64,000 bases of DNA, taken from Formosa sp. Hel3_A1_48. Lineage in GTDB: Bacteria; Bacteroidota; Bacteroidia; Flavobacteriales; Flavobacteriaceae. Below the pieces are notes generated by a model that worked only from the letters and a program-made list of their open reading frames with translations, made no database searches and was not told the origin of the DNA. The stretch lies in assembly GCF_001735715.1 (NCBI RefSeq), contig NZ_CP017259.1, positions 1,051,501-1,115,500 of the forward strand, read 5' to 3'. The first letter of the stretch is position 1; each line of letters starts with the position of its first letter. The position numbers and the translations under genes were made by a program. Positions 1 through 57,685 of the stretch are shown piece by piece.

Positions 1-1214
1 AAGCGAATGATATATGTATTTTGTCTGTAATTCAAAACTGGCTCTCCTCCTCCTGTTGTTACATCACTTGTTAATGGCATAAACTTTTTCAAATAGTAGC
101 CTGTGTGTTGGTAGCTTTGTTCAAATTCCACTTCTCCAGCATCGGCATACGCTTGCAAATCTTCAATGGTTGAATCAAATCTTGGGTCGCCAACCATTAC
201 ATCATATAAATTTTGAGTAATGATATTGAAACCCCAACCAGATGCATAACTTGGTGCATTAGGGCTTAACCTAACATATCCTCGAGGTCCACTCATCACA
301 TTTAGACTATTTCCTTCGTCTGAATCTGAGCCCCAATTACCCCATCCTGAGTTACTAAGGTTTGAATGAGACACTTCGATGATTGCTTCAGGATTGAAAT
401 CAATATCCGCACCCCATAAATCTGAGAAATCATTCAATAAGGCATAACCGTAAGGACTAGTCGCACCAGGTGTACCATTCACTTCTGAAAGTATACTGGC
501 TGCTTCTGAGTTTTTATTTCGATATAAATAAACTTTACCCAAAAGTGCTTTTACTGCCCCTTGACTAAGTCTTCCTGCCTCGCTGGCCATATCCAATTCT
601 GCAAGGGTTGCAGGAAGGGCTGGGATAGCTTGAGTCAAATCAGTTTCTATTTGATTATATACGTCATTTGGGTCCGCTTGTGTGATAGTATAATAATCAT
701 CAATACTGATTGGACCCGTTATTAATGGAATGTTTCCAAATAAACGTACCAATTCAAAGTAATATAAAGCTCTGAGTGACTTTGCTTCAGCTGCAAATCT
801 TGCTTTGGTATTCTCTGGCATATTTATTTGCGGTAACTTCGACAATAAAACATTGGCTCTGAAAATACCTTGATAATAATCATTCCAATAGCTTGGCGCA
901 ATGGTTGATTCGCTTATAGTGTAATTAGAAAATACCTGCAGTTGGCTTCCATCTGATGAACTTCCACCACCTGTATAATGATCGTCCGAACCAGAATTTA
1001 GTAATGAAATCATATTTTCAAAACCTCCTGATTGTTTTCTTAAGATATCGTAAACTGCAACTAATCCAGAATATGCTTCACTTTCATTGTTGTAGTAATT
1101 ATCTTCAAGAAAAGTTCCTTTAGGATCTACTTCCAAGTATTCTTTGTCACATGCCATTGTGATTAATACTACAGGGATGTACATCAATACTTTTTTAAAT
1201 GTTTTTAACTTCAT
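1..1214 (-). CDS. SusD/RagB-family nutrient-binding lipoprotein (partial, C-terminus beyond left edge)
   Basis: Reading the minus strand from the ATG at 1212-1214 gives an open frame that runs off the left edge with about 404 residues visible. The N-terminus is a lipoprotein signal ending in a Cys at residue 22 followed by acidic residues (CDKEYLEVD), which fits surface export of Bacteroidota lipoproteins. The segments AEAKSLRALYYFELVRLFG and GAVKALLGKVYLYR are the TPR-like helices typical of SusD proteins. SusD lipoproteins bind glycans or other oligomers at the cell surface and form a lid on the SusC channel. It starts 10 bp after the SusC stop codon, so the two are co-transcribed. The substrate cannot be told because the rest of the locus lies outside the window. 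Confidence 0.93.
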   Translation of the reverse strand, partial: MKLKTFKKVLMYIPVVLITMACDKEYLEVDPKGTFLEDNYYNNESEAYSGLVAVYDILRKQSGGFENMISLLNSGSDDHYTGGGSSSDGSQLQVFSNYTISESTIAPSYWNDYYQGIFRANVLLSKLPQINMPENTKARFAAEAKSLRALYYFELVRLFGNIPLITGPISIDDYYTITQADPNDVYNQIETDLTQAIPALPATLAELDMASEAGRLSQGAVKALLGKVYLYRNKNSEAASILSEVNGTPGATSPYGYALLNDFSDLWGADIDFNPEAIIEVSHSNLSNSGWGNWGSDSDEGNSLNVMSGPRGYVRLSPNAPSYASGWGFNIITQNLYDVMVGDPRFDSTIEDLQAYADAGEVEFEQSYQHTGYYLKKFMPLTSDVTTGGGEPVLNYRQNTYIIR

Positions 1215-1224
1215 AATATTATTT

Positions 1225-4200
1225 TTAAAACTGTAAATTAATTCCAAGTTGATTGGTAACAGCTTGTGGATAATACCCACGATCGATACCAAAAATTCCA
1301 CCTCCAATTTCAGGGTCATATCCGCTGTATTTAGTGAAAGTTAAGAGGTTTTCTGCGGTGTAATAAACCCTCAATTTATCAATTCCTAATTTGTCCAAAA
1401 CACTTTCTGGTAGACTATAACCAATTTGAATAGTTTTTAGTCGCAAGTAATCACCATCTTCCAAATAGAAATCTGATGGATTAGAAAAGTTGTTGTTTGT
1501 GTCATTGGTTGTCAGTCTTGGATGAGTATTTGAGGTTCCCTCACCTACCCATCTCCCCAAGGCTGCTGTTTGGTAATTTGCATTAACAATGTCTAATCGT
1601 CTTAACCCTTGAAAAATCTTGTTCCCTGAGGCACCTTGACAAAACATGAAAAAATCGAAGTTTTTGTAGTCTAAATTCAGTGAAAAACCAAAAGTGAATT
1701 TTGGTAGCGAACTTCCTAAGAATCCTCTATCATCAGAGTCAATATCCCCATCATCGTCCATATCAACCCACTTGAAATCTCCTGGTTGCGCATTTGGTTG
1801 AATAATGGTTCCATTTGAACTAACATAATTGTCAATTTCTGCTTGGTTCTGAAAAATTCCATTGGTTTTGAACCCATAAAAGGAATTCACGGGCTGGCCA
1901 ACTTGAGTTCTTGTTATTGGAAAGTTCGTCGATTGAATAGATGCTCCTCCAGAAAGAAAATCTACTCCATTTCCTAAATGAGTAACCTCATTTTCTACAT
2001 AAGAAACGTTTCCATTAAAGGAAAGATCGAATTCTCCAAAACTTTTGTTGTAGCCCAACTCGATGTCATAACCAATGTTGTCCATATCAGCGATATTGCC
2101 AACAGGATCTCCTATAGCACCAACATAACCTGGAATTGCTATATTTTGCAATATTCCTGTAGTAGTTTTTTTGTACCAATCGAATGATAATGAAATGTCA
2201 TTGAACAAACGCGTGTCAAATCCAATATTTAACTGGCTTGTTTCCTCCCATTTTAAATCTGGATTAGATGGTGCATTAGGGCTATTCCCAATAACTATTG
2301 AACCAGGGTTGCCAATGGTGTAGTTTCGTCCTCCACCAATTGTCGACAAGTATTGAAAATCTCCAATATTATCACTTCCTGTTACACCAAAACCACCTCT
2401 TATTTTAAGTTGATTTACGACATCATTATCGTTCCAAAATTCTTCTCTAGATGGAACCCATCCAGCAGAGAATGATGGGAAAAATCCAAATTTATTATTT
2501 GAACCGAATCGAGAAGAACCATCTCTTCTAAAAATTGCTGTAAGCAAATATTTTTCATCAAAATCATACGTTAATCTCGAAAACAATGAGGTTACTCTGT
2601 GTTCTACACCTTCATATGAAGAAGCATTAATTTGTTCTTGAGGGACTGAAAAATTGAATGATGCATCGGAATAGTTATCTACTGGAATATCATAATAAGT
2701 TACACTCTCTCCAAAAGTAATATTATCAGCATATACACCTTGCCCTAAAAGAACAGTAAAATTGTGGTCTTTGATTTTTTTAGAATACGAAATTGTGTTT
2801 TCTAAATTCCACCCCAATCCTCTGTTCGTTCCACGCGATATATTGTTTTGATTTACAATTGTAGCAGCATTCAAATAAGAAACAGGAGTAAAACTTTTGT
2901 ATCCCCAGTAGGCAAGTTTTGCCCCAACCGTACTTCTTAATTTAAGCCCCTCAATTGGTTCATACTCTACAAAAGTATTCCCCACAAAATTATCAGACCA
3001 ACCATAGTTGCCTAAACGGGTCTTTTGATAGGCCAATGGATTTGACATTTCCTGTGCAACAAAATTAGAAATACCATAAGGGTTCCCGTTATTATCTCTC
3101 CAAATTCCTTCATTGGTGTATGGAGCTTGGCCTGCAAATACAGGATCTGTTTCTACAATTGGAGTTGTTGGGTCCAAATTGATGGCAGAAGATAATGGGC
3201 CACCAAACTCACTGTTTGTGTTTCCAATACCAACATTTTTCTCATTAGAATATCCTAAAGTTTGTCCAAAACGTAATTTATCTGAAATTTCGTGTGTTGA
3301 ATTTAATCGAACATTTTTTCTAGTATAATTAGAAATATCGCTCATAACGATCCCCTCTTGTTTGTTATATCCAAAAGATGCATAAAACTTGGACACATCG
3401 TTACCCCCACTAAGACTCAACTCGTGCTGAGAACGCATGGCACTATTGTTAAAAATTACGGATTGCCAGTCTGTACCTTCTCCGAGAGATGATGGATCTG
3501 TAATTTGAATAGTTCCTCCTCCATTAACATATTTTTCATTTAATAGAGTAGCATATTCTCTGGCATTTAAAAGGTCTAATTGTCGAGATGCAGATGATAC
3601 ACCTGTATAGCTGTTTACATTTACACTTAGCTTTCCAGATTTACCTTTTTTGGTAGTAATAAGGATTACACCTGCAGCGGCTCGAGCACCGTATATTGCT
3701 TGGGATGCAGCATCCTTAAGTACTTCAACAGATTCAATATCAGATTGATTTAAAAAGCCAATACCACCTGAATCTACAACAACTCCGTCTACAACCCATA
3801 GCGGTTCGTTAAATCCTAATGTAGTGATTCCTCTAACTCTGACTGTAGAATTAGAACCAGGTTGTCCAGAAGTTGCAGCAATTGTAACTCCAGAAACACG
3901 CCCTTGTAGTGTTTGCTCGACTCTGGTGATTGGTAAATCTTCTAATTCTGTTTGTTTTACCCCAGAAATCGCACCTGTAATAACACTTTTCTTCTGTGTG
4001 CCATATCCAACGACAACAACTTCGTCTAGTAGGCTTGTATCTTCCTCCATTAGAACATTTATAACGGATTTACCGTCGACAATAATTTCTTGAGTTTTGA
4101 AGCCAATATAGCTAAACACCAATACTTTAGAATCTGAAAGCTCAGTGTTTAAACTGTAGTTTCCATCAAAATCAGTAATAGTTCCTACGGTAGTTCCTTT

Positions 4201-49546: not shown

Positions 49547-49592
49547 GTGGAGAAGATCGGATTCGAACCGACGACCTCTTGACTGCCAGTCA
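49547..49592. repeat. Left attachment-site repeat: 3' fragment of tRNA-Ala
   Basis: 46 bp identical to 57611-57656. It contains the acceptor 3' strand, T-arm, variable loop and most of the anticodon stem-loop of tRNA-Ala, and stops there; the 5' half of the tRNA is absent. Identity ends exactly after the palindrome TGACTGCCAGTCA. This is the left boundary of the integrated element. Confidence 0.93.
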
Positions 49593-49729: not shown

Positions 49730-51118
49730 ATGGCATTATTGATTGGAATTAGAAACGAAACTAATAAAGATGGATCTGTATTATTACATGTACGCTTTAA
49801 AAATAAATATTTTGACAAGAAAGTTTACACTCAAATCAAGGTTTTAAAAAAGTATTGGGATAAAAAAAACAAGACGGTAAAACCCAATCATCCTTGTTTC
49901 GAACAAAAGAGCAAACAAATAAAAAAATTAAAGGATATTATTCATGACCTCAACATGCAAAATATCGTCTCATCACTGTCATATAAAGAGGTGCGTTATA
50001 AACTAACCAATGGCTCCTATGTAAATACTATTGACTCATATTTAGATCAATATCTTAAGAGTCAAATTAAAGAAACTACATTTAAAGACTACAAATCAAA
50101 AATACAGTCTATTGGTAAAAACATGGATATTGATAGCCTCAAATTCGAAGATATATGTGACAAAAATAATTGGATAAAATTGAAAGAGAAACTTAAAGAG
50201 AAAGACAGAAGTCCAGCAACCTTCAATTCCTATTATAAGGCCGCAAAATCAATTCACACTCATGCATCAAAAGACGAGATTACATTTTCTGTCTTTCCTT
50301 ATGTTAGATATAATTCTGAAAATAATTATACCAAAAAATGGTTAAAACCTGATGAATTAATTGATATCATTAATAATCTCAGTTCTGATAAAGAAGGATT
50401 TAAAAATGATGCAACTTCGATTTTAATTTACTTAATGATGTTCTCAATGAGGGGAATGTACAGAAGAGATATTGATAAACTTTCAATGGAAGAATTTGTT
50501 GACTCGACGTATAATAATTGTACAAATTTTTCATTTGGAGAAAAAAACATGGTTTATAGACACTTTAGATCAAAAACTAATAAAATGGGGCTGATTTATC
50601 TTGGGCTATATCCAGTTCGCGAGATTATACTGTCATTAAATCATTTAATTAATCCAACTAGCAATTATCTTTTCCCTGTTTTTGGGGGTAATCTGCATCC
50701 AAATTTTTGGAGTTTACAATCAAAAAGGTTTAAAAAACTAACAAGTCATAATTTTAAGTCTGCAAGAAAAGCCTTCAATACAATCGCATCAATAAATAAC
50801 ATTCCTGACTACGACATAAGGGAACTTATGTTTCAGCAAGACAATACTATTTCGAAACACTATAAGGACACTCAAGCGCAAGAAATGTTAGTCAAGTATT
50901 CAACATATCATTTTGAGATTTTAATTAAATACAGAGTTCATGAGATGTTTGAAATGATAATTCATAAATTGATTGAAAACGGACAAACCAAACTTAAAAA
51001 ATTACTAAAGTTAGAAGATATTATTAAAAAAATAAATAACCCTAAAGTTAATTCTACAGGTCAAAGAGTCATTAAAAAAGTCCGACATAAAAATGACAAT
51101 CAAATTTTATCAGCATAA
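49730..51118 (+). CDS. Tyrosine-type site-specific integrase
   Basis: A 462-residue phage-integrase-family recombinase of the Bacteroidota type: an N-terminal arm-binding domain (residues 1-90, IGIRNETNKDGSVLLHVRFK), a SAM-like core-binding domain (~95-195) and the catalytic domain (~205-410). Probable catalytic residues are R241 (FSMRGMYRRDI), K282 or K285, H340 and R346 (HNFKSAR) and the nucleophile Y378 (ISKHYKDT). It should catalyse insertion into and excision from the tRNA-Ala anticodon region. The ATG lies 1 bp after the left GGGACCA pair, so integrase binding there could repress its own transcription. Confidence 0.93.
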   Translation: MALLIGIRNETNKDGSVLLHVRFKNKYFDKKVYTQIKVLKKYWDKKNKTVKPNHPCFEQKSKQIKKLKDIIHDLNMQNIVSSLSYKEVRYKLTNGSYVNTIDSYLDQYLKSQIKETTFKDYKSKIQSIGKNMDIDSLKFEDICDKNNWIKLKEKLKEKDRSPATFNSYYKAAKSIHTHASKDEITFSVFPYVRYNSENNYTKKWLKPDELIDIINNLSSDKEGFKNDATSILIYLMMFSMRGMYRRDIDKLSMEEFVDSTYNNCTNFSFGEKNMVYRHFRSKTNKMGLIYLGLYPVREIILSLNHLINPTSNYLFPVFGGNLHPNFWSLQSKRFKKLTSHNFKSARKAFNTIASINNIPDYDIRELMFQQDNTISKHYKDTQAQEMLVKYSTYHFEILIKYRVHEMFEMIIHKLIENGQTKLKKLLKLEDIIKKINNPKVNSTGQRVIKKVRHKNDNQILSA

Positions 51119-51191: not shown

Positions 51192-51575
51192 ATGTCTAAT
51201 AATCATGTTATGGAAATAAACAAACAATACGCATCTTGGTTAAATACCTACAAATGGAATTACTTTATTACACTACGTTCAAATTATAAATACAACTACA
51301 TGACAGTTCGAACTTGGATGAAAAACCTATTTAATAAACAAACTTCCGTTACGCGTGTTTTCTTTGCTACTGAAAGAGATAAAGGGGACTGGAAAAGCAA
51401 TCACACTCATGTGCTCATATCATCAAAAAAAACTATAACGTATTCCGAATTAAAGAAAACATTTAGTTGCTCTGTGGGAGACTATCAAATCATCAACGAT
51501 AACGAAGGTGTTACAAAGTATGTTACAAAGTTTATGGGTAAAAACATTGATTATGGCTTTAAGGGAGATTTTTAA
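51192..51575 (+). CDS. Small HUH-type replication/nicking protein (candidate)
   Basis: A 127-residue protein. YKWNYFITLRSNY (residues 20-32) looks like motif 1 of rolling-circle Rep proteins, H71-T-H73 followed by VLI is an HUH-like metal motif (NHTHVLISS), and Y110-V-T-K113 is the Yxx-K active-site tyrosine pattern of Rep_1/microvirus-type initiators. Size is at the low end for a complete Rep. If correct it would nick element DNA, for replication of an excised circle or for mobilisation. It follows the integrase by 73 bp. The call rests on motifs only. Confidence 0.6.
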   Translation: MSNNHVMEINKQYASWLNTYKWNYFITLRSNYKYNYMTVRTWMKNLFNKQTSVTRVFFATERDKGDWKSNHTHVLISSKKTITYSELKKTFSCSVGDYQIINDNEGVTKYVTKFMGKNIDYGFKGDF

Positions 51576-51683: not shown

Positions 51684-52616
51684 TTACGATTTAATTAAGT
51701 TGTTTATAAAATCATATTTTTTATTTGACAGCCTATTAATTAATCTAAAATAATCATCCTCCCAAAACTCAGTATTGTAATAATACTTCATTTTTACTTT
51801 TTCATTTTCCACAACACTGGAATATTTTGAAATTAAATTTTTATATTTTTTTCGGATATCCTTATAAATTCGAAATGCGGATTCTTTTTTCATAATTTCA
51901 TAGTACAGTTCTGGGTAATATATTTTGGAATGCAATATGTACTCCTTGATCCAAAAATCAAACTCATGATATGCAGTCATTTTACTTTGCAGATCCATTA
52001 CCCATTCCATTAGATAATCATTAGGGTATATTTCCTTATATATCGGTAGCATATCAAAAGAGAACTTAGATGAATGATAGTATGCATTAAACTCGTCTAA
52101 TAAACCAATAATTCCATCAACTTGAGTGGATGAATCTCCTTTAATGTAAGTTTCATATCTTGAAGTAATTAATGCTTCAGGGATAATCTTCGCTAATTCT
52201 GATGAGGGGAACACTATACCTTTAAAAATACTTATATAGTTATTTTTATCTGATATATAAAAATAAGATCTTATATCTTTAAAATCGTGAGGCAGATAAT
52301 TAGATTTCATTTCTTTAAAAAAGTATAAACTTGTAAGGCCATGACATATCTCGTGAATATTAACAGACATAGATTTAAGTATACTTTCTTTTGACGATAG
52401 GTCTAAATATGAGTAGGTACCTGAACTCTTTTTTGTGCTAATTTCTGTACCATCATGTGTTGTGTAGGATAATTCATTTGGTAAATCATTGTATAATTTT
52501 AAAATATTATACGATTCAATTGAATTATTCATCATTTGAGCCAATATCCAATCTAAATTATCTTCCTGTCCAAACCCTAGTGCAGTTGTAAATAATAATA
52601 GAAATAAATTTCTCAT
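51684..52616 (-). CDS. Secreted protein with HExxH metalloprotease-like motif
   Basis: A 310-residue protein with signal peptide (MRNLFLLLFTTALGFGQ). An HEICH motif at residues 88-92, followed by GLTS, fits the zinc-binding HExxH of metallopeptidases. No third ligand can be fixed, although Glu residues occur around 195-240. No named family recognised. Its ATG overlaps the stop of the membrane protein gene upstream (TAATG), so both are co-translated. It is cargo of the integrated element and reads toward the HUH gene. Confidence 0.6.
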   Translation of the reverse strand: MRNLFLLLFTTALGFGQEDNLDWILAQMMNNSIESYNILKLYNDLPNELSYTTHDGTEISTKKSSGTYSYLDLSSKESILKSMSVNIHEICHGLTSLYFFKEMKSNYLPHDFKDIRSYFYISDKNNYISIFKGIVFPSSELAKIIPEALITSRYETYIKGDSSTQVDGIIGLLDEFNAYYHSSKFSFDMLPIYKEIYPNDYLMEWVMDLQSKMTAYHEFDFWIKEYILHSKIYYPELYYEIMKKESAFRIYKDIRKKYKNLISKYSSVVENEKVKMKYYYNTEFWEDDYFRLINRLSNKKYDFINNLIKS

Positions 52617-52993
52617 TAAAGTAACTTAAGATATTCACACATTTTACTGTCTGCAATTATTATATATATGCCGCCTAGTGTAAAACCAATTGGGATTACT
52701 AAGTTTAAAAAATTAAAAATGAAACTTAAATCTCCTCTTTTTGATCTAATTAATTTATAATTTTTAGCGGTACCAATTTGAAAAAATGAACATATTAGTC
52801 CAATCCACAAGTATATGAAAGCATCTTCGTGATCTATTCCACCCAGAGTACATAATAAAGAGTCTCTGAAAAAATATAATGCAATGGAAATTAACACAAC
52901 TGTTAACCAAATAATAAGAAAAATAAAACGTTTTTTCTTATGCTGCTCAGAGTCACTTTTGCTGCCAAACCAACTATCAATAAATTTTCTCAT
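52616..52993 (-). CDS. Membrane protein with three spans, coupled to the HExxH gene
   Basis: A 125-residue protein: a basic, Ser/Lys-rich N-terminus, then spans FIFLIIWLTVVLISIALYFF (~24-43), FIYLWIGLICSFFQIG (~59-74) and FNLVIPIGFTLGGIYIIIA-like (~93-113). No family recognised. Its stop codon shares one base with the ATG of the downstream secreted protein, so the products are probably made together. Confidence 0.6.
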   Translation of the reverse strand: MRKFIDSWFGSKSDSEQHKKKRFIFLIIWLTVVLISIALYFFRDSLLCTLGGIDHEDAFIYLWIGLICSFFQIGTAKNYKLIRSKRGDLSFIFNFLNLVIPIGFTLGGIYIIIADSKMCEYLKLL

Positions 52994-53401: not shown

Positions 53402-53668
53402 ATGAAAAAACAAACAATTGTATTTATTATGATACTTTCTTTTCTTGTATCGTCTAGGATAATTTATAAGGAAAGATATTATCGAACACGATCAATTCAT
53501 AAAATAGAGATAACTCAAAATGAATATAGTCGATATGAAAATTCCAATAGTAGAGGAGGTAAGCATGCACTCTTCATAGAAAAAGAGTACGATTATTTAA
53601 TCGGTGGTATTATATCTTTCAGTTTAGGGCTTCTACTAATTGGATACAATCATTTTAAAAAAAAATAA
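53402..53668 (+). CDS. Small membrane protein with two spans
   Basis: An 88-residue protein with a first hydrophobic segment TIVFIMILSFLVSSRII (~4-20), a polar middle (EITQNEYSRYENSNSRGGKH) and a second span YLIGGIISFSLGLLLIGY (~65-82) with a Lys tail. No family recognised. It starts on the plus strand, opposite to the previous genes, and precedes the nuclease operon by 48 bp. Confidence 0.5.
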   Translation: MKKQTIVFIMILSFLVSSRIIYKERYYRTRSIHKIEITQNEYSRYENSNSRGGKHALFIEKEYDYLIGGIISFSLGLLLIGYNHFKKK

Positions 53669-53716: not shown

Positions 53717-54916
53717 ATGAATTTAAATTTGGTAAAAAAACAATACAATAATCTACTCAACGATATAGAATTTGACGAGTTGGATTTAGGGTTAAAGAAG
53801 CCTAATATATTTCAAATCTTAAGTATAACAAGAGCGGAAATTAGGCATTCAAACTTTTTAGCCTGGTTGCTTGACCCGAATGAGTCACACAAATTAGGGG
53901 GATTATTTTTAAAAAGGTTTTTAAGAGAAGTCTTCTCTTCTAACCGTTTTGAAGATATTGATCAAGTTGCTGTCGAGGGATTAGATCTTTCATCCACAAA
54001 AGTCTTAAGAGAGTGGAGTAATATTGACATTCTTATAAATGTGGATGGTATAATCATATGTATAGAAAATAAAGTTGGATCAAAGGAACATTCAAATCAA
54101 TTAGAACGCTATAAAAAAATTGTTGAAAACCAGTTTCCAGAGCATAAAAAAACATTTGTTTATCTTAACCCTGATGGATTAGATTCCGAAACACAAACAG
54201 ACTACTATCACCCTATTGGGTATAACTTTGTAGTTGAGTCTTTAGAAAGAATTTTGGATATTTATGACCATTCATTAAACGAAAGAGTAAAAAATTATAT
54301 ATCAGATTACATTATAACAATTAAGAGAGAAATTATGGGGAGTGACAAACTAATCAAGACCGCACAAAATATTTATGAAAACCATAGAGAACTTTTTGAT
54401 TTTGTAATCGAACACAAACCTCAGCCTGTTGATAGATTAATTCCAATTTTAAGTCAAGAAATTGAAAAAAAGGGATGGATCTTAGGATCTTGTAGCGGAA
54501 AGTATTTAAGATTCTACACTCCAGAAATAAAAGACTTAATATATTTTAATAAGATTAAGAAAAATGGATGGAAAAATCGAGAATCATTTTTAATGGAATT
54601 TATAGTTTACCCTCCAAACAAAAAACTAGTATTTAAGCCTGTAATTGCTCCTTCTGATGACAATTATGATGTTAAAAAACTAGACTCAATGCTAAGAGAG
54701 ATTGAAGGTTTTAAAGAACCTAAGGGTAAACAATGGTTAGTGAATTATCAGCAGAATATTAAGTTTGATTTTGACCAAATTCCCGAACTAACTGATGACG
54801 AAATCAAAACAAAAGTAAACTTGTTTATAGAAAAAATATCCCCTGCAGTAAATAAGATTACAAATAAATTTTTAGAAAACTCTCAGGTGCTTTTGAAAAT
54901 GAAGGAAAATAAATAA
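53717..54916 (+). CDS. PD-(D/E)XK nuclease family protein
   Basis: A 399-residue protein of the PD-(D/E)XK_4 type. The N-terminus has the family's helical part with EIRHSNFLAWLLDPNESH. The nuclease core is NIDILINVDGIIICIENKVG: Asp 104, Glu 117 and Lys 119 from the ATG at 53717. A GTG 9 bp upstream is also possible. SKEHSNQLERYKK and TFVYLNPDG complete the fold. The C-terminal 200 residues are less conserved. Such proteins occur in defence loci and on mobile elements. It is the first gene of a three-gene operon, 12 bp before the zinc-ribbon gene. Confidence 0.85.
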   Translation: MNLNLVKKQYNNLLNDIEFDELDLGLKKPNIFQILSITRAEIRHSNFLAWLLDPNESHKLGGLFLKRFLREVFSSNRFEDIDQVAVEGLDLSSTKVLREWSNIDILINVDGIIICIENKVGSKEHSNQLERYKKIVENQFPEHKKTFVYLNPDGLDSETQTDYYHPIGYNFVVESLERILDIYDHSLNERVKNYISDYIITIKREIMGSDKLIKTAQNIYENHRELFDFVIEHKPQPVDRLIPILSQEIEKKGWILGSCSGKYLRFYTPEIKDLIYFNKIKKNGWKNRESFLMEFIVYPPNKKLVFKPVIAPSDDNYDVKKLDSMLREIEGFKEPKGKQWLVNYQQNIKFDFDQIPELTDDEIKTKVNLFIEKISPAVNKITNKFLENSQVLLKMKENK

Positions 54917-54928
54917 CCTTGCCAAAAG

Positions 54929-56467
54929 ATGCCGTCAAAAAATAAAAAATCACTTGCTGAAACTCACCCTGAAGTTGCCAAACAATGGCATCCCACAAAG
55001 AATAGTGGTTTTTCTTTTGACGATGAAAACCTAAAAAAATATATAAAATATTGGTGGAAATGTGACGTAGCAGATGACCACGAATGGCAATCGAATATTT
55101 ACAACCGATTAGATGGGAAAGGATGTCCTGTTTGTATTGGACAAAAAGTTGTTAAATCGAATTGTTTAGCAACAATAAATCCTGAATTAGCAAGACAATG
55201 GCATCCAACAAAGAATGGGGGTTTATCACCTTATAATGTTAGTCCAAAAAGTAATAAAAAGGTATGGTGGAAATGTGATATAGGAGATGACCACGAATGG
55301 GAATCTAAAATTAGCAATAGAGCAAATGGCAAAAACTGCCCAATTTGTTCAGGTCAAAAAGTTGTATTATCAAATTGTCTCGCCACAACAAATCCTGAAT
55401 TAGTAAGACAATGGCATCCAATAAAGAATGGAAATTTAACCCCTCACGCTGTTACTTATGGATCAAACAAGAATGTATGGTGGAAATGTGATAAAGGAGA
55501 TGACCACGAGTGGGAAGCATCCATTGTGAATAGAACTAAAAGGAACAGTGGTTGTCCTGTGTGTGGAAATGATAAAATAGTATTATCAAATTGTCTCGCC
55601 ACAACAAATCCTGAATTAGCAAGAGAATGGCATCCTACTAAAAATATTAAACTTACTCCTTTCGGAGTTACTGAAAAAAGTACAAATAAAGTATGGTGGA
55701 AATGTGATAAAGGAGACGATCACGAGTGGAGAGCAAGTCCTCTAATGAGAAAGAAGACTTCTTGCCCTGTTTGTGTAAATCTAAAGATTGTTAATTCCAA
55801 CTGTTTAGCAACAACCCACCCAAAAATCGCCAAACAATGGCATCCAACAAAAAACGGAAACTTAACCCCATTAGATATTAGCGTTGGAAGCGCAAAAAAG
55901 GTATGGTGGAAATGTAATAAAGGAGATGACCACGAATGGAAAACAAGTTCTGCTAAAAGGTTATATGGAAGAAATTGTCCTTTCTGTACCCTCACTCCCC
56001 AATCAAAACAGGAACTTACAATAACTTTTGAGTTAATGAAACTGTTTAAAAATATTGACCCAAAAGGGTTAAAAACTCGTTTAGAAGGACGATTAAGGGC
56101 AATCGATATATTTATTCCAAAACTTAATTTATGTATAGAATTTGACGGTTCTTATTGGCATAAAGATAAGCGAGACATAGACAAAATCAAATCTGAAATG
56201 CTATTTGAAGAAGGGTTTAAGTTAATACGAGTAAGAGAAGAACCACTTAAAAAGATATACGATACAGATGTTATAAGTAAGAAACCCTACGACGGCAAAC
56301 AAGTGACTAACGACATACTATCAATGATTTTATCTATATTTGAGTTAGACTATAAATTAGTGTCTAAAATTAAAGCGTATCAATCCAAAGATGGTTTACA
56401 AAACGAAAAAGGATTAGATAAATACATTGATAAAATACTAACTGAAAAAGCAGAAAAAAGTGGATAA
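54929..56467 (+). CDS. Five tandem zinc ribbons fused to a Vsr-like endonuclease domain
   Basis: A 512-residue protein. Residues ~8-350 are five copies of a zinc-ribbon unit of ~68-72 residues (DUF4379 type): 'NPELARQWHPTKNG', a WWKC, then DDHEW, then CPxC, giving one C-H-C-C site per unit. Residues ~355-460 are a PD-(D/E)XK-type nuclease of the Vsr/DUF559 group: AIDIFI near residue 391, IEFDGSYWH near 404-411 and FKLIRVREEPL. The zinc ribbons probably bind DNA and the C-terminus cuts it. It ends in a helical tail. It overlaps the next gene by 8 bp and follows the PD-(D/E)XK_4 gene by 12 bp. Confidence 0.85.
   Translation: MPSKNKKSLAETHPEVAKQWHPTKNSGFSFDDENLKKYIKYWWKCDVADDHEWQSNIYNRLDGKGCPVCIGQKVVKSNCLATINPELARQWHPTKNGGLSPYNVSPKSNKKVWWKCDIGDDHEWESKISNRANGKNCPICSGQKVVLSNCLATTNPELVRQWHPIKNGNLTPHAVTYGSNKNVWWKCDKGDDHEWEASIVNRTKRNSGCPVCGNDKIVLSNCLATTNPELAREWHPTKNIKLTPFGVTEKSTNKVWWKCDKGDDHEWRASPLMRKKTSCPVCVNLKIVNSNCLATTHPKIAKQWHPTKNGNLTPLDISVGSAKKVWWKCNKGDDHEWKTSSAKRLYGRNCPFCTLTPQSKQELTITFELMKLFKNIDPKGLKTRLEGRLRAIDIFIPKLNLCIEFDGSYWHKDKRDIDKIKSEMLFEEGFKLIRVREEPLKKIYDTDVISKKPYDGKQVTNDILSMILSIFELDYKLVSKIKAYQSKDGLQNEKGLDKYIDKILTEKAEKSG
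54955..56005 (+). repeat. In-gene tandem repeats coding for zinc ribbons
   Basis: Five direct repeats of about 205 bp. The boundary between units is most alike at 55367-55402 and 55574-55609, which share most of a 36-bp stretch (around ATTGTCTCGCCACAACAAAT). The high DNA identity suggests recent unit duplication or conversion. Confidence 0.8.
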
Positions 56468-57083
56468 AATAAAGAACTTCTTTCTAAATAATTTCATAAT
56501 AATAATTCTTATAACTCTCTGTTATTTGATTTATAATGAATACTATAATATTCTTTTGTACTTGTTTTTGATATGGATAATTTCTGTAGCCGGAATATGG
56601 ATTTATGCCGCTTTTCGTGCGTATCAGTTAAAGGACCTAAAAATAATTTTAACGCGTTCGTTATTACTTAAACTTTTTTATTTATTAATAATTATTGGTT
56701 TTGTTGTTAAATCAATTCCTTCAGTATTAGATTCGTTAACCTTTTTATATTATGACGAAAACAAAGAAAAAATAATAAATGCGCTTGTAGCAAGTAATTC
56801 AAAAACAAGTGTAAGATCCGATGGATCAACTTTTACAAGCATAAATGATAATAACGATGGAGTTAAATATATTTTTACCCTTCCATATTATTCATCCACT
56901 GAAAGTGATTCATTACCAACCTCAACAACAAAAGAGGAAACAATTAATTACTTGAAAGAAATACTTAAAGATGAGGATATAAGACGATTTAAAAATTATG
57001 ATATCTACTTTAAATTTATGTATTACAACCAGAATAATTATTTAGTTAGGGAAATTAAAATAGACCCAAATAAAGATTTTTAG
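56460..57083 (+). CDS. Membrane protein, third gene of the nuclease operon
   Basis: A 207-residue protein starting with GTG at 56460, inside the end of the zinc-ribbon gene (8-bp overlap). Three hydrophobic segments occur at ~10-25, ~29-52 (LLYLFLIWIISVAGIWIYAA) and ~68-87 (LLKLFYLLIIIGFVVKSI). After them comes a soluble domain of about 115 residues (SVRSDGSTFTSINDNNDGVK, then KEETINYLKEILKDEDIRRF). No family recognised. The overlap implies it is made together with the nucleases. Confidence 0.7.
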   Translation: MDKIKNFFLNNFIIIILITLCYLIYNEYYNILLYLFLIWIISVAGIWIYAAFRAYQLKDLKIILTRSLLLKLFYLLIIIGFVVKSIPSVLDSLTFLYYDENKEKIINALVASNSKTSVRSDGSTFTSINDNNDGVKYIFTLPYYSSTESDSLPTSTTKEETINYLKEILKDEDIRRFKNYDIYFKFMYYNQNNYLVREIKIDPNKDF

Positions 57084-57610: not shown

Positions 57611-57656
57611 GTGGAGAAGATCGGATTCGAACCGACGACCTCTTGACTGCCAGTCA
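57611..57656. repeat. Right attachment-site repeat within tRNA-Ala
   Basis: 46 bp identical to 49547-49592; here the sequence continues into the full 5' half of the tRNA. It includes the anticodon-arm palindrome TGACTGCCAGTCA at its inner edge. Confidence 0.93.
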
Positions 57657-57685
57657 AGCGCTCTAGCCAACTGAGCTACATCCCC
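57612..57685 (-). tRNA. tRNA-Ala (anticodon GGC), integration target
   Basis: A 74-nt cloverleaf on the minus strand: acceptor GGGGATG/CTTCTCC, D-arm GCTC/GAGC, anticodon stem CTTGA/TCAAG with loop CTGGCAG (GGC), and T-loop GGTTCGAATCC. The G3-U70 pair that alanyl-tRNA synthetase reads is present. There is one U-U mismatch at 6-67. CCA is not encoded. Its 3' half is the repeat shared with 49547-49592. Confidence 0.93.

What the first reader, a model, noticed from the sequence alone, without database searches (positions are those of the whole stretch)
53717..57083. Three-gene operon of PD-(D/E)XK nuclease, zinc-ribbon/Vsr-like nuclease and membrane protein: candidate undescribed defence system
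Seen: spacing of 12 bp, then an 8-bp overlap with a GTG start, so the three are made together. Two carry intact nuclease motifs (Asp104/Glu117/Lys119; AIDIF plus EFDGSYWH) and the third is a membrane protein with a soluble domain. They are cargo of a mobile island. Inferred: a DNA-targeting pair with a membrane component fits an anti-phage or anti-plasmid role. I do not recognise this set as a named system.
Basis: partly seen in the sequence, partly recalled or inferred. Interest (0 to 1): 0.78.

Follow-up and report, generated by a model that had tools for sequence, protein, structure and literature searches.

The report
Mobile-island nuclease operon, not a system
A small mobile DNA island in a bacterium carries three tightly packed genes, two of them for DNA-cutting enzymes, but their relatives were not found together elsewhere, so this looks like a one-off assembly of known gene kinds rather than a new immune system.

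Summary
The anatomy is as described: gene 1 (53717-54916), a 12-bp gap, gene 2 (54929-56467), an 8-bp overlap, gene 3 (56460-57083, GTG start). They are cargo of an 8,064-bp integrative island bounded by a 46-bp repeat of the tRNA-Ala 3' end; in 6 of 10 sister genomes the left flank joins the tRNA directly.

The three-gene-system reading is not supported. Gene 1 is a PD-(D/E)XK nuclease of PADLOC's existing candidate family PDC-S26. Gene 2 has five DUF4379 treble-clef repeats and a Vsr-type nuclease whose best solved sequence relative is the mobile-intron protein 3r3p, the architecture of a homing-endonuclease outgroup described in 2025 (PMC12350094, passages). Gene 3 has a membrane part and a C-terminal domain shared with single-helix and lipoprotein-like proteins. 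In the loci held, outside this genome none of 41 gene-1-like, 44 gene-2-like and 11 gene-3-like proteins has another of the three beside it.

Best reading: a cargo operon of three independent gene kinds. Gene 1 alone is a credible defence candidate; gene 2 is homing-endonuclease-like; gene 3 is unknown.

The parts
49547..49592 (.). left attachment repeat: 46-bp copy of the tRNA-Ala 3' end
   Evidence: perfect 46-bp direct repeat with 57611-57656
49730..51118 (+). integrase, 462 aa (tyrosine-recombinase type, inferred from the families matched)
   Evidence: Pfam Arm-DNA-bind_5 1.5e-6; PHROG integrase 4.3e-8
51192..51575 (+). small Rep/117-like protein, 127 aa
   Evidence: Pfam 117-like_vir 8.8e-4, below the curated cut-off; phrog_7769, unknown function, 5.9e-6
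51684..52616 (-). 310-aa secreted-looking protein with an HExxH motif seen by eye
   Evidence: ORF; no Pfam, PADLOC, NCBIfam or PHROG match
52616..52993 (-). 125-aa membrane-protein-like ORF
   Evidence: ORF; only weak matches, none at a curated cut-off
53402..53668 (+). 88-aa small membrane-protein-like ORF, possible first gene of the operon
   Evidence: 48 bp upstream of gene 1, same strand; no family match
53717..54916 (+). gene 1: PD-(D/E)XK nuclease, PDC-S26 family
   Evidence: Pfam PDDEXK_4 9.9e-32; PADLOC PDC-S26 4.5e-124 over residues 4-390 of 399; catalytic D/E/K conserved
54929..56467 (+). gene 2: five DUF4379 treble-clef repeats plus C-terminal EDxHD/Vsr-type nuclease
   Evidence: DUF4379 4.7e-92, 5 stretches; nuclease profile to 3r3p 3.8e-7; Vsr entries 1vsr and 1cw0 are Foldseek matches 1 and 3, probability 0.97, E 0.028 and 0.040
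56460..57083 (+). gene 3: membrane protein with a C-terminal alpha/beta domain
   Evidence: model helices 2-25, 29-56, 60-111 then strands and helices (mean pLDDT 61); C-terminal domain shared with 11 other proteins
57611..57656 (.). right attachment repeat, inside tRNA-Ala
57611..57685 (-). tRNA-Ala(GGC), integration site
   Evidence: left flank joined directly to the tRNA in 6 of 10 sister genomes

Best explanation
The three genes are the cargo operon of an 8.06-kb tRNA-Ala integrative island, not a co-evolved three-part defence system. Shown: families, motifs, island borders, uninterrupted junctions in relatives, and no co-location in the loci examined. Inferred: gene 1 works alone as a PDC-S26-type auxiliary nuclease that cuts invading DNA, as suggested by relatives beside R-M and other defence genes; gene 2 binds a DNA site through its five zinc-binding modules and cuts it with its Vsr-type domain, as a free-standing homing-endonuclease-like gene that favours its own or the island's spread over rival DNA; gene 3 is an inner-membrane protein whose C-terminal domain faces the periplasm, so a direct part in cytoplasmic DNA cleavage is unlikely.
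For: Co-location: profiles of each family over the 192 loci held meet only in loci cut from this genome; outside it 41 gene-1, 44 gene-2 and 11 gene-3 distinct proteins, none paired. In two searches of 395 phylum genomes each, taken to be the same sample, PDC-S26 is in 34 and DUF4379 in 9; independence predicts 0.8 genomes with both, and 2 have both (this one, adjacent; G249, different contigs, DUF4379 below cut-off). None of the 23 plasmid records with a gene-1 relative is among the 60 of 81 gene-2 plasmid records listed (by eye). Gene 1: PDC-S26; homologue neighbours include type I R-M subunits, Wadjet JetA, a type II methyltransferase and an IetA-like ATPase. Gene 2: best solved sequence relative 3r3p 'Mobile intron protein' 3.8e-7, Vsr entries 0.17-0.22; a relative annotated as homing endonuclease lies inside the three-piece RNA-polymerase gene of phage AR9; architecture as in PMC12350094. 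Gene 3 domain relatives have one membrane segment or a lipoprotein-like start and no gene-1 or gene-2 relative beside them. Island.
Against: The packing argues for co-expression, and third-position GC of genes 1-3 (0.258, 0.244, 0.217) is alike and below the host mean of 0.310 (29 genes), so they may share a long history. No intron, intein or empty allele for gene 2 was shown, so homing is by analogy; 3r3p is not among the 50 Foldseek rows listed for the nuclease model, and no row there is below E 0.001. 7 of 14 tested gene-1 neighbourhoods gave no defence-family match. PDC families are described as mostly unvalidated (PMC12988326, passages). In G199 both families occur, on different contigs, one of them short, so linkage there is not excluded. 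Most phage and plasmid places were not opened for neighbours (4 plasmid and 2 phage places read).
Confidence: 0.7

Rival explanations
1. A rare, lineage-restricted three-gene defence system: gene 2 finds the foreign site, gene 1 degrades the DNA and gene 3 anchors them or acts at the membrane.
For: Tight packing with overlap and similar third-position GC; gene 1 belongs to a defence-candidate family; mobile-island cargo.
Against: No second example in the loci held; gene 3's domain occurs in single-segment or lipoprotein-like proteins, and charge pattern puts it outside the cytoplasm (topology inferred); gene 2 relatives are widespread on plasmids and phages.
Confidence: 0.1
2. A two-nuclease inter-element competition module: the island uses gene 2 as a site-specific nuclease against rival elements at tRNA-Ala sites, with gene 1 as a general nuclease; gene 3 is unrelated.
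For: Sister genome G633 has a truncated tRNA-Ala copy with the right flank next to another ORF, and elsewhere an 89% attachment-like copy beside an integrase relative and a restriction-type gene, so such sites may be contested; homing nucleases promote their own carrier (PMC12350094).
Against: No target site identified; no linkage of genes 1 and 2 in the other loci held.
Confidence: 0.12
3. Gene 1 is not defensive but a general DNA-repair or accessory nuclease.
For: 7 of 14 tested neighbourhoods gave no defence-family match in the neighbours scanned.
Against: Patchy occurrence (34 of 395 genomes, 0 of 14 control genomes), and R-M, Wadjet and methyltransferase neighbours.
Confidence: 0.06

Closest known systems
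PDC-S26 (PADLOC-DB 2.0.0 candidate defence family; Pfam PDDEXK_4)
   Same: Gene 1 matches over 387 of 399 residues (4.5e-124); catalytic residues kept
   Different: Here it is followed by genes 2 and 3, which none of the other homologues held has beside it
EDxHD/Vsr homing-endonuclease outgroup with CapR/DUF4379-like repeats (PMC12350094, passages)
   Same: Same order of parts: five repeats spaced 70-72 residues (three to five ~60-aa domains in the paper), then a Vsr-type nuclease
   Different: Free-standing inside an island operon; no intron, intein or target shown
PDB 3r3p, 'Mobile intron protein' (the name I-Bth0305I is recalled)
   Same: Closest solved sequence relative of the nuclease domain (3.8e-7)
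   Different: Remote similarity; not among the 50 structural matches listed
Vsr mismatch endonuclease (PDB 1vsr, 1cw0)
   Same: First and third structural matches of the nuclease model, probability 0.97
   Different: E 0.03-0.04 in structure and 0.18-0.22 in sequence; no methyltransferase among the eight island proteins scanned

Membership tests
PDC-S26 | Full-length match to the PADLOC profile | tested here: met
   4.5e-124, profile positions 5-390 of 397
PDC-S26 | Embedded in or beside a known defence system (how PDCs were found; not part of the profile) | tested here: inconclusive
   No PADLOC match better than 0.08 in the six other island proteins scanned; integrase and the rest of the window not scanned. 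Among homologues, 7 of 14 loci tested
PDC-S26 | Anti-phage activity | not testable with these tools
   No assay; validation pending for most PDCs (PMC12988326, passage)
PD-(D/E)XK nuclease superfamily | Catalytic D...ExK | tested here: met
   D104 21, E117 22, K119 22 of 22 aligned sequences
EDxHD/Vsr homing-endonuclease outgroup | Three to five DUF4379/CapR-like repeats then a Vsr-like domain | tested here: met
EDxHD/Vsr homing-endonuclease outgroup | In an intron or intein, or a mobile intergenic gene with an empty allele | tested here: inconclusive
   Free-standing in an operon; no gene-2-less copy of this island was found, its integrase having only a 31%-identity relative and a fragment in 10 sister genomes
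EDxHD/Vsr homing-endonuclease outgroup | Site-specific cleavage of the empty allele | not testable with these tools
   No assay
A conserved three-gene defence system | The genes recur together in independent genomes | tested here: not met
   No co-location in loci from outside this genome (395-genome searches)
Integrative island at a tRNA gene | Integrase, attachment repeats, uninterrupted site in relatives | tested here: met

The most novel reading that the evidence does not exclude
Gene 2 is a natural modular site-reading nuclease: zinc modules with a fixed scaffold (three invariant Cys, near-invariant Trp and Asn, His in 128 of 152) and several highly variable positions (20, 24, 27, 43, 45, 49, 51 of the 56-column module), in arrays of up to nine detected copies, which the island uses against rival DNA together with gene 1. 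The module statistics allow this but do not single it out: most variable columns differ almost as much within a protein as between proteins.
Probability: 0.08. Interest if true: 0.75.

Novelty: new member of a known kind. Interest (0 to 1): 0.3.

Why it matters
It shows that close gene packing on an island is weak evidence for a shared function: each of the three can be traced to its own family with its own contexts. The useful leads are that a DUF4379-Vsr nuclease, a kind described as homing endonucleases in phage introns, also travels as island cargo beside a candidate defence nuclease, and that its repeat modules could be tested for modular DNA reading.

Tried and rejected
Named-system match: PADLOC gave PDC-S26 for gene 1, one weak Csx19 hit (0.084) for gene 2 and nothing for gene 3. 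Gene 2 as a recent arrival from another genome: not supported, its third-position GC (0.244) is like that of most island genes (0.18-0.26; the Rep-like ORF 0.33). Gene 3 match in G154: rejected, the ORF looks like a methyltransferase (by eye). Gene 3 match in G112: a CNNM/CBS protein. Four other weak gene 3 matches (G789, G641, G715, G828; 3.9e-4 to 0.009) were not followed. Promoter and terminator scans: no more than chance. Gene 3 structure: pLDDT 61; its top Foldseek match was a type II secretion pilotin (E 0.011), not relied on. Gene 2 matches in G125 and G042 (nuclease part only, 1.7e-4 and 2.2e-4) and a fragment at a contig end in G137 were left out of the argument. Papers on PDC-S26 by name: none in the library; DUF4379: three, of which passages of two were read.

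Scans that found nothing: genome contigs with genes 3 and 1 (both scans used), viral contigs with genes 3 and 1 and the gene 2 nuclease domain, plasmids with gene 3. The contig scans with a single protein find only close relatives, so they say little about distant ones.
Full report
Observation. The three ORFs are as reported: 53717-54916, 54929-56467 and 56460-57083, with a 12-bp gap and an 8-bp overlap. Each scores best in its own frame against the codon usage of 29 host genes. An 88-aa membrane-like ORF lies 48 bp upstream on the same strand and may belong to the same transcript.

Island. A perfect 46-bp repeat lies at 49547-49592 and 57611-57656; the second copy is the 3' part of tRNA-Ala(GGC). 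Between them lie an integrase, a small Rep/117-like protein, two minus-strand genes and the operon. In 6 of 10 sister genomes of the genus (G046, G631, G633, G634, G636, G637) the left flank abuts the tRNA to within one or two bases. G634 and G637 hold a single copy of the 46-bp sequence in the stretch read and have right-flank genes on the other side. G633 is not simply empty: its right flank follows a truncated tRNA copy on another contig, next to an ORF that looks like an integrase by eye. G629 has the tRNA but no abutting left flank was reported; for G630, G632 and G635 no near-identical tRNA copy was reported. The window's integrase has a 31%-identity relative in G633 (residues 11-308 and 330-408 of 462) and a fragment in G629, and no match in the other 8.

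Gene 1. Pfam PDDEXK_4 (9.9e-32) and PADLOC PDC-S26 (4.5e-124). D104, E117 and K119 are D in 21, E in 22 and K in 22 of 22 aligned sequences. The nearest homologue found (L055, 47% identity over 399 aa) lies at a contig end, on a contig with an integrase-like ORF (by eye), a Rep-like fragment (2e-4) and a tRNA-Arg. PADLOC scans of 19 neighbouring proteins from 14 of the 24 gene-1 loci fetched gave defence-family matches in 7 loci: type I specificity or methyltransferase subunits (L066, L071, L082), JetA one gene further on (L080), a type II methyltransferase (L057), an IetA-like ATPase (L059) and a LmuB/AriA-like ATPase on the opposite strand (L056). The other 7 loci gave none. Relatives occur in 23 plasmid records and 2 phage records. 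PDC families were found by 'guilt-by-embedding' and are mostly unvalidated (PMC12988326, passages). The term PDC-S26 is in no paper of the library searched.

Gene 2. Five DUF4379 repeats (4.7e-92) spaced 70-72 residues, then a nuclease domain. A profile of that domain with four viral-contig relatives finds 3r3p 'Mobile intron protein' at 3.8e-7; next come a putative prophage capsid protein (0.013, probably chance), an endonuclease-like protein (0.017) and three Vsr-type entries (0.17-0.22). Its model (mean pLDDT 80) has Vsr as first and third Foldseek matches (probability 0.97, E 0.028 and 0.040) and AbaSI as second; no match is below 0.001, and 3r3p is not among the 50 rows listed. PMC12350094 (passages) describes phage-intron homing endonucleases with three to five ~60-aa domains distantly related to CapR, DUF4379 and DUF723, followed by a domain distantly related to EDxHD/Vsr nucleases, and calls them part of a large unrecognized outgroup. 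A gene-2 relative in phage AR9 (24% identity, 1e-7) is annotated as a homing endonuclease and lies within the three-piece RNA-polymerase gene. Relatives occur in 74 phage records, 81 plasmid records and 29 viral-contig loci. DUF4379 is in 9 of 395 phylum genomes and in 2 of 14 control genomes; in the three strong non-own cases (G277, G360, G534) the neighbours look like ordinary genes by eye.

Gene 3. No family above a curated cut-off in Pfam or NCBIfam, no PADLOC match and only weak PHROG matches. Its single-sequence model has three long N-terminal helices and a C-terminal alpha/beta part, mean pLDDT 61. Residues 113-204 match 137-aa proteins with a lipoprotein-like start (by eye) in three genomes of another family (best 4.7e-6). 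A profile from these finds 8 further genomes among 169 of the family; the eight proteins read have one predicted membrane segment and no gene-1 or gene-2 relative in the stretch held around them, up to about 1.5 kb on each side. From the charge distribution I infer that the C-terminal domain is periplasmic.

Do they travel together? Profiles of the three families were run over the 192 loci held. Two or more families meet only in loci from this genome. Outside it there are 41 distinct gene-1-like, 44 gene-2-like and 11 gene-3-like proteins; at least 500 bp on both sides were held for 40 of 41, 38 of 44 and 10 of 11, so immediate neighbours were visible for most but not all. In the two 395-genome phylum searches, which I take to be the same sample, PDC-S26 is in 34 and DUF4379 in 9; both occur in this genome and in G249 (different contigs, DUF4379 below cut-off), against 0.8 expected by chance. 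G199, from the family searches, also has both, on different contigs; its gene-2 contig is only 6,768 bp, so linkage there cannot be excluded. None of the 23 plasmid records with a gene-1 relative is among the 60 of 81 gene-2 plasmid records listed (compared by eye; 21 not listed). Most phage and plasmid places were not opened for neighbours.

Conclusion. The gene cluster is real, is island cargo, and holds one credible defence candidate; as a three-gene system it is not supported.

Noticed in passing
L133 (G633:C105) 89-135 and 265-3134: A sister genome has an 89% copy of the attachment sequence followed by an integrase relative (31% identity) and a contig-end ORF matching a type IIG restriction-methyltransferase model (PADLOC 6.1e-189), suggesting that tRNA-Ala-type sites in this genus take up elements with defence cargo.
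   Followed up: partly
L126 (G633:C68) 3-900: A truncated tRNA-Ala copy plus the right flank follows a different ORF that looks like an integrase by eye: probably another element at the same site.
   Followed up: partly
window 51684-52616: A 310-aa secreted-looking island protein with an HEICH motif (zinc-protease-like, by eye) and no family match.
   Followed up: no
window 53402-53668: An 88-aa membrane-like ORF directly upstream of gene 1, possibly the operon's first gene.
   Followed up: no
window 54929-56000, DUF4379 repeats: Over 152 repeats of 37 proteins the three Cys columns show no other residue and several positions are highly variable, within proteins almost as much as between them.
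   Followed up: partly
L187 1498-2049: A relative of gene 3's domain carries two CxxC pairs in front of its membrane segment (by eye); two other domain relatives scanned have no Pfam family above cut-off, hinting at an undescribed envelope domain.
   Followed up: no
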